Source: JAUWCW01 sp030609125 [NCBI: Candidatus Rokuibacteriota bacterium] (lineage in GTDB: Bacteria; JAUVQV01). Taken from it: a DNA stretch of 16,397 nucleotides. Below the pieces are notes generated by a model that saw nothing but the letters and a program-made list of their open reading frames with translations, was not told where the DNA came from and ran no database searches. This document shows positions 8,601 through 15,989 of the stretch, in pieces. Numbering within the stretch: position 1 is the stretch's first letter; each line of letters begins with the position of its first letter. The DNA lies in the NCBI GenBank assembly GCA_030609125.1, contig JAUWCW010000015.1:1-16397 (forward strand). The letters run 5' to 3'. The position numbers and the translations under genes were made by a program.

Positions 8601-9509
8601 GTGAGACGGCTCATAGACACGAAGATAGATCCCGGCCGGTGCACCGGCTGCGGCGAGTGCGTCCGCGTCTGCCCTTCATTCGCCATCGAGATGGCGGGCG
8701 ACGTGGCGGTGGTTACGGGAAAGTGGTCCATCGGCTGCGGCCACTGCGCCGCCGTGTGTCCCGCCGATGCCGTAACCGTCGGCTTCATCGACGAGGACGC
8801 CCTGAGGCTCGCCACCGCGGAGATGGACGAGACCCTCCTGGAGCCGGGCGCGTTCGACACCCCGTCGCTCATCCGACTCATGCGCTCGCGGCGCTCGTGC
8901 CGCAACTACCTCGAGCGGCCGGTCCCGGAGGAGGTCCTGGACGATCTGGTCAGGATCGGCACCACCGCACCGTCGGGCACCAACTGCCAGCTCTGGAGCT
9001 TCACCATCCTCCCCGACCGTACGTCGGTGATGGCCCTCGGCGGCGCCGCGGCCGAATTCTTCCGCCGCCTCAACCGGAAGGCGGAGAACCCCGCCCTACG
9101 GCTCATGGCGAAGGCTTTCATGGGAGACGTGCTGGGAGAATACTACCGTGACTGGTACGAATCGGTGAAGGACGGGCTGCGCCAATGGGACGACGAGGGG
9201 CGCGACCGGCTCTTCCACGGCGCTCCCGCCGCAATCCTGGTCGGCTCCCGGCCGGGGGCGACCTGCCCCGTGGAGGACGCCCTTCTGGCGAGCCAGAACA
9301 TCCTTCTCGCCGCCCACGCCATGGGCCTCGGGACCTGCATGGTGGGCTTCATCGTCGAAGCCCTGAGCCGGGACGCGTCGATCCCCCGCCTTCTCGGCAT
9401 TCCCGCGGACGAGAAGATCCACGCCGCCATCGCCGTCGGCTACCCCGACGAGCCCTACCGGGCCCCGGCGGGGAGAAGGAGAATCGAACCGCGGTACTTC
9501 CGTCCCTGA
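8601..9509 (+). CDS. Nitroreductase-family flavoprotein with N-terminal ferredoxin domain
   Basis: A 302-residue fusion. Residues 10-60 are a bacterial ferredoxin domain: the first cluster motif [12 protein letters not shown] is intact (C14, C17, C20, C24), while the second reads [12 protein letters not shown] with Ser43 where the first Cys is usual (C46, C49, C53 remain). Residues 85-302 are the FMN-binding nitroreductase fold: [14 protein letters not shown] binds the FMN phosphate, [13 protein letters not shown] follows, and [12 protein letters not shown] lies near the C-terminal third. Such fusions pass electrons from the clusters to FMN for reduction of nitro, quinone or other acceptors; the true substrate is unknown. 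GTG 8601 is the earliest start because an in-frame TGA lies three codons upstream. Its ribosome-binding site is poor: GGAAGGAGG lies 27 bases away. Confidence 0.9.
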
Positions 9510-11485: not shown

Positions 11486-11758
11486 ATGCACGCCATGAAG
11501 ACGTCCCTGAAAGCGACAGCCGGAATTGCCCTCCTCACCGCGCTTATGACGGGATGTGCCGGGACACAGGAGCCGGCGGAAGGCCCCGGGGCGGGAAGGT
11601 CCGTGTCGGTGGTCATCACCTGCCCCGTCTCCGGCACGGAACTCGGGGCGCCCGCCCGGGCATGGCAATCGGAGTACAGGGGCCAGACCTACTACTTCTG
11701 CTGCGCCGATTGCAAGAAAGACTTCGACAAGAATCCCGAGCGGTACCTGAAGAAATAA
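11486..11758 (+). CDS. Small lipoprotein with YHS-type metal-binding domain
   Basis: A 90-residue protein. Residues 1-24 are a lipoprotein signal: basic MKTSLK, hydrophobic core, lipobox LMTGC with C24 as the lipidated residue. After a Gly/Pro-rich spacer, residues 44-90 form a YHS/TRASH-like domain: ITCPVSGTELG (C46) and then YYFCCADCKKDFDKNPERYL (C72, C73, C76). These small domains bind copper or other soft metals in sensors and copper enzymes, so an envelope metal-binding role is likely but not shown. The ATG has GGAGG five bases upstream; ATG 11495 is an alternative. Two nitroreductases and two cysteine-cluster proteins follow at short spacing, suggesting one transcript. Confidence 0.88.
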   Translation: MHAMKTSLKATAGIALLTALMTGCAGTQEPAEGPGAGRSVSVVITCPVSGTELGAPARAWQSEYRGQTYYFCCADCKKDFDKNPERYLKK

Positions 11759-11779: not shown

Positions 11780-12298
11780 ATGAACACCCTTCTGCAGCTC
11801 ATGTTTTCGCGAAGAAGCGTTCGCCGATACCAGGACCGTGAGATATCCGAAAAGACCCTGAAAGACCTGCTGGAGGCGGCCATGGCCGCCCCGTCGGCGG
11901 TGGCAAAAGACCCGTGGCACTTCATCGTGATCAGGAACAAGGAGACCATGGGGCGCATCGCCGATCTTCTGCCCAACGGGCAGATGCTCCGTCGCGCCGC
12001 GGCGGCGATCGTCGTTTGCGGAGACATCGAAAAGGCCCACGACCGGGAAGAGTCGTACATGCTCCAGGACTGCAGCGCCGCCATCGAGAATATTCTTCTC
12101 GCCGCGACGGCCCTGGGCCTCGGCTCCTGCTGGCTGGGTGTACACCCCCGCACGGAGAGGATAGAGGGGATCCGGAGACTTTTCGATCTGCCGGAAAAGA
12201 TCATTCCCGTCGCCGGAATCTCTCTCGGCTGGCCGGAGAAGAACCCCGGCCCCCGGACACGGTACAGCGGCGATTCAGTTCACTGGGAGACATGGTAA
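11780..12298 (+). CDS. Nitroreductase-family flavoprotein (172 aa)
   Basis: A compact single-domain member of the FMN-dependent nitroreductase superfamily. MFSRRSVRRYQDREISEKTL is the N-terminal phosphate-binding Arg/Ser motif, AAMAAPSAVAKDPWHF the second FMN contact, and ATALGLGSCWLGVHP the third. The product ends in a Gly-Pro-rich strand (ISLGWPEKNPGPRTRY) that completes the dimer in this family. No ferredoxin domain is present, so electrons would come from NAD(P)H or a partner. GGGGAGGAG precedes the ATG. It lies 21 bases after the YHS lipoprotein gene and 10 before the next nitroreductase. The short form of this type is common in anaerobes; the substrate is unknown. Confidence 0.92.
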   Translation: MNTLLQLMFSRRSVRRYQDREISEKTLKDLLEAAMAAPSAVAKDPWHFIVIRNKETMGRIADLLPNGQMLRRAAAAIVVCGDIEKAHDREESYMLQDCSAAIENILLAATALGLGSCWLGVHPRTERIEGIRRLFDLPEKIIPVAGISLGWPEKNPGPRTRYSGDSVHWETW

Positions 12299-12308
12299 AG
12301 GAGAAGTC

Positions 12309-12971
12309 ATGGACGCCATAGACTGCATCAGAACTCGCAGGAGCATTCGCGCTTTCCGCAAGGGGCCCGTCCCGAAAGAGATCCTCATGGAGGTGATCGA
12401 CGACGCCAGGTGGAGCCCCTCCTACAAGAACAGCCAGCCCTGGGAAATCATGATCCTCTCCGGGGCCGCCAAGGAGGCCCTGTCAAAGCACATGGTGGAA
12501 CTGCTCGAGAGCGGGGCGGAGCCCACTCCCGACATGCCGGAGCCGCACTCCTGGCCGGAGGCGGAAAAGGCGCGGATCGACCACCTCTACAAGACTCGCT
12601 CGGAAGCGACGGGCATCGACTTTTCCGACCCCGCGGTGGTCAGAAAAGCCAAGAAAGTCAACTTCAACTTCTACCGCGCCCCGCATGCCATCTACCTCTT
12701 TCAGGACGGCTCCCTCACCCCGTGGTCACTCTTCGACCTGGGGCTTTTCGCCCAGAGCCTGATGCTGGCAGCCCACGCCAGGGGAATCGGCACCGTCCCC
12801 CAGGCGTTCGCCACCGACTACGCCCGGCAGATAAAGAGCTTTCTCTCCATTCCCAAGACGAAGCGTCTCGTCCTCGGCATCTCCGTCGGCTACCCCGACG
12901 AGAGCGCCCCGGCCAACGCGCTGAGAACCGATCGCGCAGCCGCGCAAGAGCTCGTGACATGGAATGAGTGA
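12309..12971 (+). CDS. Nitroreductase-family flavoprotein (220 aa)
   Basis: A second, longer nitroreductase in tandem with the 172-aa one and clearly diverged from it. It has CIRTRRSIRAFRKGPVPKEI (FMN phosphate site), ARWSPSYKNSQPWEIM (second FMN motif) and AHARGIGTVPQAFATDY. An insertion at residues 65-110, rich in Glu, Pro and His, separates the first and second halves and probably shapes the substrate pocket. The end, LGISVGYPDESAPANALRT, resembles PnbA/NfnB-type enzymes that reduce nitroaromatics or quinones. AAAGGAG lies seven bases before the ATG. The stop overlaps the start of the next gene by 8 nt, so translation of the two is coupled. Confidence 0.92.
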   Translation: MDAIDCIRTRRSIRAFRKGPVPKEILMEVIDDARWSPSYKNSQPWEIMILSGAAKEALSKHMVELLESGAEPTPDMPEPHSWPEAEKARIDHLYKTRSEATGIDFSDPAVVRKAKKVNFNFYRAPHAIYLFQDGSLTPWSLFDLGLFAQSLMLAAHARGIGTVPQAFATDYARQIKSFLSIPKTKRLVLGISVGYPDESAPANALRTDRAAAQELVTWNE

Positions 12972-13431
12972 GAAGGGGCGGCGTCCGCCTTCTTCCCCGG
13001 AAGATCTCACCCCCCACCTGCAGGAACGCCTGCAGCGGCTCGTCCCGCGGCTGATCGAGCTGGGGCTGGGATGCGTTCACTCCGCCGAGACCGAGTCCGA
13101 CGGCGGAGCAGACTCATCCGTGGACTGCCTCGACCGCATCCGCGTCTGTCGGGCCGTCTGCTGCAGCTACCGCTTTGCCCTCACCGAGAGCGAAGCCGAC
13201 GGGGGCAGAATCCTCTGGGACCGGGAGAAACCGTATTTCATCGCCCGTGATGAGAACGGGTACTGCACCCACCATGACACGTCGACGGGGAAGTGCCTCA
13301 TCTGGGAGGACCGTCCCCTCCGCTGCCGACGATACGACTGCCGGAGGGAAAGCACCCACTGGGAGGACGCGGATCGCCACGTTATTCGCCGGGGCACGTT
13401 CGATCACCTGCCCGGGGAAAAACCGCGGTGA
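12964..13431 (+). CDS. YkgJ-family cysteine-cluster protein
   Basis: A 155-residue soluble protein with the YkgJ cysteine signature. The key motif is CRAVCC (C62, C66, C67), then YCTHHDTSTGKCLIWEDRPL with C101 and C111, then RCRRYDC (C121, C126). In this family the cysteines are thought to bind zinc or an iron-sulfur cluster; no reaction is known. C37 and C55 are additional. The first 35 residues include an amphipathic helix (LQERLQRLVPRLIELGLG). The start overlaps the preceding nitroreductase by 8 nt, and the end overlaps the next gene in a GTGA junction. That wedges it into a tightly coupled redox cluster and suggests a role in supplying or sensing metal for it. Confidence 0.88.
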   Translation: MSEKGRRPPSSPEDLTPHLQERLQRLVPRLIELGLGCVHSAETESDGGADSSVDCLDRIRVCRAVCCSYRFALTESEADGGRILWDREKPYFIARDENGYCTHHDTSTGKCLIWEDRPLRCRRYDCRRESTHWEDADRHVIRRGTFDHLPGEKPR

Positions 13432-14045
13432 GCACCTACAACCACCGACAGACGGAGGCCATTCTTCTCGTACGCCGGCACCTTGCCGGTCTTTCCGGGA
13501 ACGAGGTGAGCCGCCTGAAGCAGAGCATGGCGCCGTACCTGGGGTTCAGGGATGAGGTCTCCTCTTTTCAGGCGGAAACCCTCGCCGGCGTCTGCACCGT
13601 CCGCTGTTTTCACGACCGGACAAGCGCCTGCTGCGGCCGCGAGGGCATCTTCACGTTCTTTGCGGACGTGGTGATGAACGTTCTTCTCTCAACGGGGGAG
13701 CAGAGCGACAGAATCCTGGAGACACTCGAGGAGGACACGGGCGGTCCCGACTGCGTTTACCTTGGCGACACCGGCTGCCTGTGGCGCCTCAAGCCGATCA
13801 TCTGCGAGATGTTCCTCTGCGGGCACGCCAGGGAGTCTGTCCTGGAAAAGAATGAGCCGCTCGCAAAACGATGGGAAGGTCTTCGGCGGCGGGAAAAGCT
13901 CTTCACCCTGCCCGACCGGCCGGTGCTCTTCGATGACCTGGAGAGCTTCTTTCTGGAAGCCGGGATGGAGAGCCCCCTGATGTACTTTCATCGCTCCCCG
14001 GGCCTGCTGCGCCTCAAGGCAAAGCACGGCGTCGGCCGGAAATAG
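13428..14045 (+). CDS. Second, divergent YkgJ-like cysteine-cluster protein (205 aa)
   Basis: Its cysteines follow the same order as in the preceding gene: C56-x3-C60 and CC at 68-69, then C109, C117 (DTGCLWRLKPIIC), C126 and C131 (CEMFLC). CLWRLKPIICEMFLC aligns by eye with CLIWEDRPLRCRRYDC of its neighbour, so I read the two as diverged paralogues. Differences are the wider gap before CC and a long C-terminal half (residues 135-205) with two likely helices and no cysteines. GTG 13428 is chosen because it overlaps the previous stop as GTGA. The frame is open further upstream (to 13293), but only in the shadow of that gene. A metal- or cluster-binding role is inferred from the cysteines only. 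Confidence 0.75.
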   Translation: MSTYNHRQTEAILLVRRHLAGLSGNEVSRLKQSMAPYLGFRDEVSSFQAETLAGVCTVRCFHDRTSACCGREGIFTFFADVVMNVLLSTGEQSDRILETLEEDTGGPDCVYLGDTGCLWRLKPIICEMFLCGHARESVLEKNEPLAKRWEGLRRREKLFTLPDRPVLFDDLESFFLEAGMESPLMYFHRSPGLLRLKAKHGVGRK

Positions 14046-14797: not shown

Positions 14798-15697
14798 ATG
14801 TACACTTGGGGCGCGATGCACTCCGAGCCGTTCGATCCGTCCCGGGCCTGGCTGCGCGGGCCCGACATGTTCCGGCGCTTCCGTGTGCCCGATGCCGGCC
14901 TGCAGCTGAGGGACGCAGCGTTGAAGGAGGAGACTGAGCTGCTCGTTTTCGAGCGGGGCGGTCTCCGGAGGGCCCTTGTGCTCCAGCAGATGGGCTACCA
15001 CCACCTGGCGCAGGGTGAGCTGGGGGGCCGGCCGTACCTCGTCTCTTTCTGACCCGTCTGCAACAGCGGTGTCGGTCTGACACCGTTGCTCGACGGCACG
15101 CTCCACCACTTCAGCGCCGGCGGGCTGTACAACGGCCTCGTCCTGCTGATTGACGACGAGACACAAACGTACTGGGACCACATAACGGGTGCGGCTCTCC
15201 ACGGTCCGCTCGCGGGCCGACGGCTCGTGACGTGGAGCGTCGCCGTGACGACGGTGGCGGCGGCCCTGAAGGACTCTCCGGACATCACCGTTTCACTTTC
15301 GGGGAAGATGCCCCTGAGGGCGCGGCTCTTCAGCCTGCTCCATCGGCGCACGATAGGGGCGAGGGGCTTTCTGCCTCCCCCCTTCCTCGTGACCATGGGA
15401 AAAGCCGACGATCGGCTGCCGCGCATGGCGCAGGGGCTCGGCGTGGCAGAGGCGGGGACGGCGCGCTTCTATCCCGCGGCGGCAATCGGGACCGGCATTC
15501 AGGACAGCTGGGACGGCCGGATCCTGCGCGTGGCCTTCGGTCCCGTAGACGGCGTTCCCTTTGCCGGCTGGGAGGACGGCGGCCGGCCCTTTCAGATATT
15601 CACGAGGTGGTACGGCTTCTCGTACACCTTTCCCGGCTGCGAAATATTCCCCCGGGGGGGGCCGGGTCTGCCTAGAGACTCTTCAGGAAGCTCTTGA
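14798..15697 (+). CDS. DUF3179-family protein, probable selenoprotein (in-frame TGA = Sec)
   Basis: One 300-codon frame contains a single TGA at 15050-15052. The residues around it are GGRPYLVSF-U-PVCNSG, where DUF3179 proteins have LVTFCPxCNSG. The TGA thus replaces the first Cys of the CxxC motif (U85, C88). Homology continues on both sides. Before it are RRALVLQQMGYHHLAQGELG; after it come LYNGLVLLIDDETQTYWDHI and TGAALHGPLAGRRLVTW, the family's two best-known motifs. A SECIS-like hairpin follows the TGA. DUF3179 has no established biochemical role; a UxxC pair suggests thiol redox chemistry. ATG 14798 has GGCGGA six bases upstream; GTG 14741 (AAAGGG upstream) and ATG 14816 are alternatives. 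The end overlaps the convergent PilZ gene by 26 bases. TGA works as a normal stop in many genes here, so the code is standard. Confidence 0.82.
15064..15088 (+). promoter_or_regulatory. Predicted bacterial SECIS element
   Basis: The stem is 15064-15073 with 15079-15088: ten consecutive pairs including one G-U (15066/15086). The loop is GGTCT (15074-15078), beginning 21 nt after the TGA. Bacterial SECIS hairpins lie just downstream of the UGA inside the coding region. The E. coli fdhF loop also contains GGUCU, with the G-U pair contacted by SelB. Position, stem length and loop all agree. Confidence 0.75.
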
Positions 15698-15989
15698 TTC
15701 TCTCCCGGCTCTTTTCGTTCATCTGCAGGAACTCGACACCCATCCCCGCCGCCTTCTGCTGCCAGGCGACCCTGCCGCTGCCGGTTATCGATATGTCGGG
15801 ATAGTTGTCGGGTATGAAGAACGAAAAGGTCACCGGTGCGCCGGCCGCGAGGGGGACCATGGTGTCGATGAAGATTCCCCCTTCTCCCAGGTCCATGATC
15901 CGGCCCAGCAGCGGCGGGCAGTTGCTGCGGTACTGTATCTCGGCCAGGAAGTGGTGGCGGGGCCAAGAGCGTTTCTCGTCGATCGTCAT
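15672..15989 (-). CDS. PilZ-domain protein (105 aa)
   Basis: A stand-alone PilZ domain, the usual receptor for cyclic di-GMP. RSWPR at residues 7-11 is the RxxxR motif. The second motif, normally D/N-x-S-x-x-G, reads DLGEGG (D33 to G38) with Gly in place of Ser. IFIDTMVPLAAGAPVTFSF and GSGRVAWQ are the following barrel strands, and a C-terminal helix (NEKSRERIKSFLKSL) closes the domain. The ATG has GGAG nine bases upstream and lies 26 bases after the stop of the PilT/PilU-like gene, so the two are probably one operon linking c-di-GMP to pilus function. The 3' end overlaps the convergent DUF3179 gene. Nucleotide binding is likely but weakened by the missing Ser. Confidence 0.9.
   Translation of the reverse strand: MTIDEKRSWPRHHFLAEIQYRSNCPPLLGRIMDLGEGGIFIDTMVPLAAGAPVTFSFFIPDNYPDISITGSGRVAWQQKAAGMGVEFLQMNEKSRERIKSFLKSL

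What the first reader, a model, noticed from the sequence alone, without database searches (positions are those of the whole stretch)
14798..15697. A probable selenoprotein of the DUF3179 family (UxxC in place of CxxC)
The only break in a 300-codon frame is a TGA that falls exactly on the first cysteine of the family's CPxC motif (TTC TGA CCC GTC TGC). Homology to DUF3179 continues for over 200 codons after it. A hairpin with a GGTCT loop follows at the SECIS position. A random nonsense mutation would not be expected to hit that codon and also sit next to such a hairpin. I do not recall DUF3179 among the described bacterial selenoprotein families. A Sec-containing redox pair would give this uncharacterised family a first mechanistic clue.
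Basis: partly seen in the sequence, partly recalled or inferred. Interest (0 to 1): 0.92.

Follow-up and report, generated by a model that had tools for sequence, protein, structure and literature searches.

The report
A selenoprotein of the DUF3179 family
A gene interrupted by a stop-like UGA codon very probably makes a full-length selenium-containing protein; its family was already on published selenoprotein lists, but the gene's close relatives nearly all carry the same UGA, and its predicted shape resembles that of iron-sulphur (Rieske) proteins.

Summary
In detail: frame 14798-15697 is broken only by TGA 15050-15052, on the first Cys of the DUF3179 C-P-x-C motif, and a hairpin with loop GGUCU starts 21 nt later. 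The selenoprotein reading is strongly supported. The genome has tRNA-Sec, selA, selB and a selD that is itself TGA-interrupted. Of 39 close relatives (56-79% identity over the searched stretch), 38 have TGA at the same codon and one has Cys. Hairpin partners at synonymous codon positions covary; the loop glycine codon is GGT in 39 of 39. The novelty claim fails: two reviews list DUF3179 (UxxC/T) as a selenoprotein family, citing a 2007 study. Added here: (i) the gene lies in a clade that is almost wholly Sec (40 of 41 tree rows); (ii) structure prediction gives the Sec-bearing domain a Rieske-type fold (VIA Z up to 9.7; all 50 rows shown), with the UxxC apparently away from the usual cluster-ligand loops; (iii) a His 17 residues before the Sec/Cys is kept in 96 of 99 sequences. 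Most likely function: a cytosolic thiol/selenol redox protein; chemistry and substrate are inferred.

The parts
14816..15697 (+).
   Evidence: start by alignment of MHSEPFD with MHSQPFD of L051
15050..15052 (+). in-frame UGA, read as selenocysteine (residue 85 counted from 14798)
   Evidence: TGA at this codon in 38 of 39 relatives, Cys in 1
15059..15061 (+). Cys88, fourth residue of UxxC; Cys in 41 of 41 rows of the clade
14999..15001 (+). His68, 17 residues before the Sec; His in 96 of 99 DUF3179 rows; probable active-site partner (inference)
   Evidence: invariant
15067..15085 (+). bacterial SECIS upper stem-loop, 7 bp with loop GGUCU (15074-15078), 21 nt after the UGA; a lower stem may extend it to about 15054-15096
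14960..15256 (+). Rieske-type fold domain that carries the Sec (residues about 55-153 of the predicted model)

Best explanation
The gene encodes a full-length, probably cytosolic DUF3179 selenoprotein of about 293 residues. UGA 15050-15052 is decoded as selenocysteine by SelB, tRNA-Sec and the SECIS hairpin at 15067-15085. The Sec sits at the end of a beta strand in a Rieske-type fold domain that appears to lack the Fe-S ligands. It is probably the reactive selenol of a thiol/selenol redox centre: Sec85 reacts with an oxidised or electrophilic substrate and Cys88 resolves it, assisted by His68, which the predicted beta hairpin should place opposite the Sec. Shown by computation: machinery, conserved codon, covarying SECIS, predicted fold. 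Inferred: actual Sec insertion, the selenenyl-sulphide chemistry, the His-Sec contact, the lack of a cluster; the substrate is unknown. The confidence below is for Sec decoding of this UGA; for the thiol/selenol chemistry I would say about 0.6.
For: TGA on the motif Cys. tRNA-Sec 67.9 bits, anticodon tca; selA (593.7 bits) directly before selB on C310; selD with its own TGA in KTCGU. Of 39 relatives 38 have TGA and 1 has Cys. tRNA-Sec or selB found in 36 of the 38 TGA genomes. SECIS helix: 29 cells changed on both sides against 9.5 in shuffles, covariation 0.254 against 0.075 shuffled and at most 0.076 when slid. Third positions of a Gly and a Thr codon pair in 33 of 36 distinct sequences against 14.2 expected; the loop Gly is GGT in 39 of 39 although GGT averages 20% of Gly codons elsewhere in these genes. 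The Cys relative L056 lacks the hairpin. Fold: pLDDT 92; a NirD-type protein and two Rieske ferredoxins at Foldseek probability 1.00; VIA Z up to 9.7.
Against: No protein, 75Se, read or ribosome data. G118 and G119 have TGA but neither tRNA-Sec nor selB was found (incomplete assemblies possible). L055, L065 and L066 break one SECIS pair and the outermost pair 18-36 fails in 17 of 36. Two of the five covariation measures do not exceed the shuffles: pairs with a change on both sides 3 against 2.2, further pair types 8 against 8.3. Folding energy alone is weak for most relatives (mean z -1.1 over 44 TGA sequences). No Foldseek match reaches E 0.001, the whole-model VIA Z is only 7.3, and profile comparison with Rieske sequences finds nothing. 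No neighbour gene points to a partner.
Confidence: 0.93

Rival explanations
1. The TGA is a genuine nonsense mutation or an assembly error, and the gene is a pseudogene.
For: The genome is a 376-contig assembly, 92% complete; a stop does break the frame.
Against: 38 of 39 relatives from many phyla share the TGA at this codon. Downstream of it, codon third positions differ 1.7 to 2.4 times as often as first or second positions in each of six relatives compared. Sec machinery is present.
Confidence: 0.02
2. UGA is a true stop and two separate products are made, the N-terminal piece and a restart such as TTG 15086.
For: A 203-residue frame from TTG 15086 exists mechanically.
Against: The predicted domain runs across the UGA. 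One close relative encodes Cys there and stays one frame (L056), and 29 of 100 DUF3179 rows have Cys at the column.
Confidence: 0.02
3. Sec is inserted, but the protein is a metal or Fe-S binder in which Sec85, Cys88 and His68 are ligands (a rewired Rieske centre) rather than a thiol/selenol redox enzyme. This rivals only the chemistry, not the Sec decoding.
For: Rieske-type fold; His at -17 in 96 of 99 rows.
Against: The aligned ranges put the UxxC about 30 residues into the Rieske domain, before the usual ligand loops (16-114 against 2-96; ligand positions recalled). The fourth position is Thr, Ala, Val or Ser in 23 of 27 Sec rows outside the clade. No profile similarity to Rieske sequences.
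Confidence: 0.15

Closest known systems
DUF3179 selenoproteins (Pfam PF11376; UxxC/T) listed in PMC9312934 and PMC13188914 (table passages seen), cited to Zhang and Gladyshev 2007 (reference seen; paper not held)
   Same: Same Pfam family, same Sec position in UxxC
   Different: The window protein is in a divergent clade: no signal-peptide-like N-terminus by eye (no predictor run), WHE replaced by YHH, Cys always at the fourth position, 40 of 41 rows Sec; the Pfam match covers profile positions 19-147 of 292 only. Whether the published example accessions belong to this clade could not be checked.
Rieske-type ferredoxins and NirD (Rieske or ISP-type fold)
   Same: Predicted fold of residues about 55-153; about 90-98 residues aligned at 2.4-3.4 A in the ferredoxin and NirD rows
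   Different: No sequence similarity by profile comparison; the Cys/His cluster ligands are not apparent at the corresponding loops; the Sec motif lies elsewhere in the chain
Bacterial SECIS of E. coli fdhF
   Same: Stem-loop just downstream of UGA; the string GGTCTG at the apex is shared (fdhF identity checked)
   Different: Stem sequence and spacing differ; here 21 nt lie between UGA and the loop

Membership tests
DUF3179 (PF11376) | Pfam match over the curated cut-off of 27 bits | tested here: met
   74.4 bits, E 1.3e-20; 30 of 30 scanned clade members match
DUF3179 (PF11376) | Match along the whole profile (not required by the curated cut-off) | tested here: inconclusive
   Only positions 19-147 of 292 match; the second half is divergent but alignable to homologues
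DUF3179 selenoproteins | In-frame TGA at the first Cys of CPxC, with Cys homologues | tested here: met
Bacterial selenoprotein gene | tRNA-Sec, SelA, SelB and SelD in the genome | tested here: met
Bacterial selenoprotein gene | bSECIS model: loop 3-9 nt, upper stem 4-16 bp, G in the first two loop positions, 16-37 nt from UGA, MFE -7.5 or lower (Fig. 2 legend of PMC13188914, seen) | tested here: met
   loop GGUCU of 5 nt, stem 7 bp, spacing 21 nt, -10.4 kcal/mol
Bacterial selenoprotein gene | Sec detected in the protein | not testable with these tools
   needs 75Se labelling or mass spectrometry
Rieske [2Fe-2S] proteins | Rieske-type fold | tested here: met
   on a predicted model only
Rieske [2Fe-2S] proteins | Cluster motifs CxH and CxxH | tested here: inconclusive
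   no profile similarity; no residue-level structural alignment was available, only ranges

The most novel reading that the evidence does not exclude
DUF3179 is a Rieske-fold family that uses a Sec/Cys-His centre instead of an Fe-S cluster, and the window belongs to a cytosolic clade, spread over many phyla, that is nearly always Sec and has kept one SECIS core throughout.
Probability: 0.4. Interest if true: 0.55.

Novelty: new member of a known kind. Interest (0 to 1): 0.33.

Why it matters
Annotation that takes UGA as a stop would cut such genes in two, and NCBIfam has no model that matches this clade (30 of 30 members without a match). A clade that is almost always Sec is a good place to ask what Sec offers that Cys does not. 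The Rieske-type fold would give an uncharacterised family a first structural lead that can be tested with purified protein.

Tried and rejected
Rejected: my own first idea that Sec replaces the Rieske box II Cys (C-P-x-H-G against U-P-x-C). Profile comparison found nothing, and the aligned ranges put the UxxC earlier in the domain than the ligand loops. A random nonsense mutation was rejected.

Led nowhere: neighbour clustering. One search printed only its 25 largest clusters; one search went through all 136. With the nine closely related Caldilineaceae loci counted as one, no cluster other than the DUF3179 frames and frames overlapping them reached more than 3 of the 32 remaining units; flanks are at most about 6 kb and often shorter. 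Rfam gave no SECIS family in this stretch, only two rows far below their gathering scores. Viral contigs and phages gave no match; plasmids gave 3 distant DUF3179 genes with Cys. PDB sequences gave no relative of the clade at E up to 1. Class and phylum searches around the window hold 2 genomes, around G025 and G033 3 and 1.

Results against: energy z-scores of most relatives are unremarkable. Two TGA genomes lack both tRNA-Sec and selB hits, and 3 of 8 Cys genomes have one or the other, so machinery alone does not predict Sec. G001, with a Cys-free DUF3179, also has tRNA-Sec. Two of five covariation measures do not exceed shuffles. In one search, 4 of 48 places carry a TAA or TAG besides the TGA and 3 carry two or three TGAs; in three of the four (L120, L121, L124) the TAA or TAG lies well after the motif, near the end of the printed stretch; L091 was not looked into.

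Rows dropped: of 40 sequences (window and 39 relatives), 30 went into the full model (without L054, L068, L069, L074, L082, truncated, frame-broken or gapped, and without the near-copies L075, L077-L080) and 27 into the domain model (also without L056, L071, L076). L074 was left out of the tree; L119 was dropped by the script (it reads UPLC). Of 48 places, one (G156) was not fetched and two (L127, L128) do not cover the column.

Papers: the 2007 Olavius paper was not seen. Of PMC9312934, PMC13188914, PMC12013277 and PMC9230427 I saw passages only; of the other papers, listings only.

Full report
What is there. The + strand frame from 14798 is interrupted once, by TGA 15050-15052, and ends at TGA 15695-15697; its first start codon is GTG 14741. 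With the TGA read as a residue, the protein matches Pfam DUF3179 at residues 39-166, E 1.3e-20. The TGA falls on the first Cys of the family motif. Alignment with L051 (MHSQPFD) suggests that the start is ATG 14816, giving about 293 residues.

The genome can make selenoproteins. G000 (376 contigs, 92% complete) has one tRNA-Sec over the Rfam cut-off, confirmed by ARAGORN with anticodon tca. selA and selB lie one after the other on C310. selD is present and is itself interrupted by a TGA in the motif KTCGU.

Relatives share the TGA. A scan of named genome contigs with 81 residues around the site found 39 loci at 56-79% identity. Their record titles name Polyangia, Deltaproteobacteria, Desulfobacteraceae and Desulfobacterales, Planctomycetota, Holophagae and Acidobacteria, Krumholzibacteriota, Chloroflexi (with Anaerolineae, Caldilineaceae and others), Gemmatimonadetes, unspecified proteobacteria and one Heimdallarchaeota. 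TGA stands at exactly this codon in 38 of 39; the Heimdallarchaeota locus L056 has Cys. One of the six search patterns demanded Cys at the site and none demanded TGA, so the search did not favour Sec. Of the 38 genomes, 31 have a tRNA-Sec over the cut-off and 5 of the other 7 have selB, so 36 of 38 have at least one. Of 8 genomes whose DUF3179 has Cys, 3 have either one.

The wider family. In 98 genomes (the window's own, one of its order, 96 others of the domain), 12 had a match to the window protein. Besides the window's own genome, 4 had TGA at the same column (UPLC or UPLT), and all 4 have tRNA-Sec. In 395 genomes of the phylum of G111 (the genome of L055, titled Desulfobacterales), 45 have a DUF3179 match, at 48 places. 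Of the 45 places that I could read across the column, 27 have TGA, 17 Cys and 1 Asp (with L055). On a quick tree of 100 sequences (68 Sec, 29 Cys, 2 His, 1 Asp) the window lies in a set of 41 rows, 40 Sec and 1 Cys, with support 99; the tree needs at least 6 changes between Sec and Cys (few columns, many forks unresolved, a long branch leads to this set). The fourth motif position is Cys in 41 of 41 rows of this clade but in 4 of 27 other Sec rows, the rest being Thr, Ala, Val or Ser (L119, dropped there, has Cys).

The SECIS. The 48 nt from the TGA fold at -23.7 kcal/mol (z -3.2) and the upper stem-loop 15067-15085 at -10.4 (z -3.4). It meets the bacterial SECIS model as given in a figure legend of PMC13188914: 5-nt loop, 7-bp stem, G in the first two loop positions, 21 nt from the UGA. 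Across 39 TGA sequences (36 distinct) the core GGNGTCGGTCTGACNCC is kept but for GTT/CTA in place of GTC/CTG in three. The 7-pair helix has 92.1% of cells paired, 29 double-sided changes against 9.5 in shuffles, and covariation 0.254 against 0.075 in shuffles and at most 0.076 when slid; the counts of changing pairs and of pair types do not exceed shuffles. The most telling pair joins the free third positions of a Gly and a Thr codon, with six standard pair types and 33 of 36 paired against 14.2 expected. The loop glycine is GGT in 39 of 39, while GGT averages 20% of glycine codons elsewhere in these genes. Protein coding alone does not explain this. The Cys relative L056 lacks the hairpin. 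The apex GGTCTG is also in E. coli fdhF (42-nt piece recalled, matched in 5368 of 5426 genomes and annotated fdhF in the rows shown). Against: folding energy alone does not single out most relatives (mean z -1.1 for 44 TGA sequences, including 4 canonical DUF3179 genes and selD, against -0.1 for 7 Cys sequences).

Fold. AlphaFold models of the whole protein (30 sequences, pLDDT 91, pTM 0.88) and of the Sec domain alone (27 sequences, pLDDT 92, pTM 0.82) are confident. For the domain, Foldseek ranks a NirD-type protein first and Rieske ferredoxins third and fourth, each at probability 1.00 with E 0.02 to 0.17, and none below E 0.001. VIA-align gives Z up to 9.7, 64 chains at Z 8 or more, and the 50 rows shown are Rieske-fold proteins by title or, for NirD and NdmB, by recall. 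With the whole model the best Z is 7.3, under the tool's caution level of 8, and the first 43 rows are again of this fold, the next at Z 3.5. There is no sequence-profile similarity to a set of 9 Rieske proteins, so common ancestry is not shown. The aligned ranges (domain 16-114 against chain 2-96) put the UxxC (domain 46-49) about 30 residues into the Rieske domain, ahead of the usual ligand loops (ligand positions recalled); no residue-level alignment was available. A His 17 residues before the Sec/Cys is kept in 96 of 99 rows. In the predicted hairpin (strands 30-36 and 39-46) it should face the Sec; that is my inference from strand register, not a measured distance.

How it most likely works. 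Sec is inserted at the UGA by SelB and the hairpin; then a selenol/thiol redox cycle runs on Sec85 and Cys88 with His68. The insertion is strongly supported by computation; the chemistry and the substrate are inference. No neighbour gene is shared widely enough to suggest a partner. Canonical members such as L030 begin with a long hydrophobic stretch; the window protein shows none by eye, so a cytosolic place is likely (no predictor run).

Known or new. Two reviews list 'DUF3179 domain-containing protein, UxxC/T' among bacterial selenoprotein families; the first cites the 2007 Olavius symbiont study (PMC9312934; PMC13188914; passages seen). In the held library 3 papers contain DUF3179 and 1 contains PF11376; the passages seen are two family tables and one gene list and say nothing of fold or function. 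So the locus is a new member of a known kind. The near-obligate-Sec clade and the Rieske-type fold did not appear in the passages these searches led to; the searches cover open-licence papers only, and I did not read the papers in full.

Noticed in passing
L020 (G000 C159:5730-6647): selD of the same genome is itself a predicted selenoprotein gene (TGA in KTCGU).
   Followed up: partly
L002 (G000 C220) and L019 (G001 C238): A short DUF3179 paralogue in this genome and its nearest held relative has HDPAL or HDPAR in place of the CPxC motif, so a Cys-free branch of the family exists.
   Followed up: partly
L120-L124: A DUF3179 branch with YUPLVD: Sec without a second Cys in the motif, so the redox pair is not universal.
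   Followed up: partly
L071 about 900-1,200 bases upstream of the site; L062 about 1,500 bases upstream: A second DUF3179-like stretch lies in tandem with the selenoprotein gene.
   Followed up: no
window about 13278-14045; also beside the gene in L046 and L054: An unassigned protein (no Pfam match) recurs within 2 kb of the selenoprotein gene in two other loci, on a different side and strand.
   Followed up: no
window 8601-9509, 11780-12298, 12309-12971: Three nitroreductase-family genes, the first fused to a 4Fe-4S ferredoxin domain, lie within about 4.4 kb.
   Followed up: no
window 11486-11758: A small YHS-domain protein; YHS is another family on the published selenoprotein list, but this listed frame has no internal TGA.
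   Followed up: no
window 15672-15989, - strand: A PilZ-domain gene overlaps the 3' end of the selenoprotein gene by 26 bases on the other strand.
   Followed up: no
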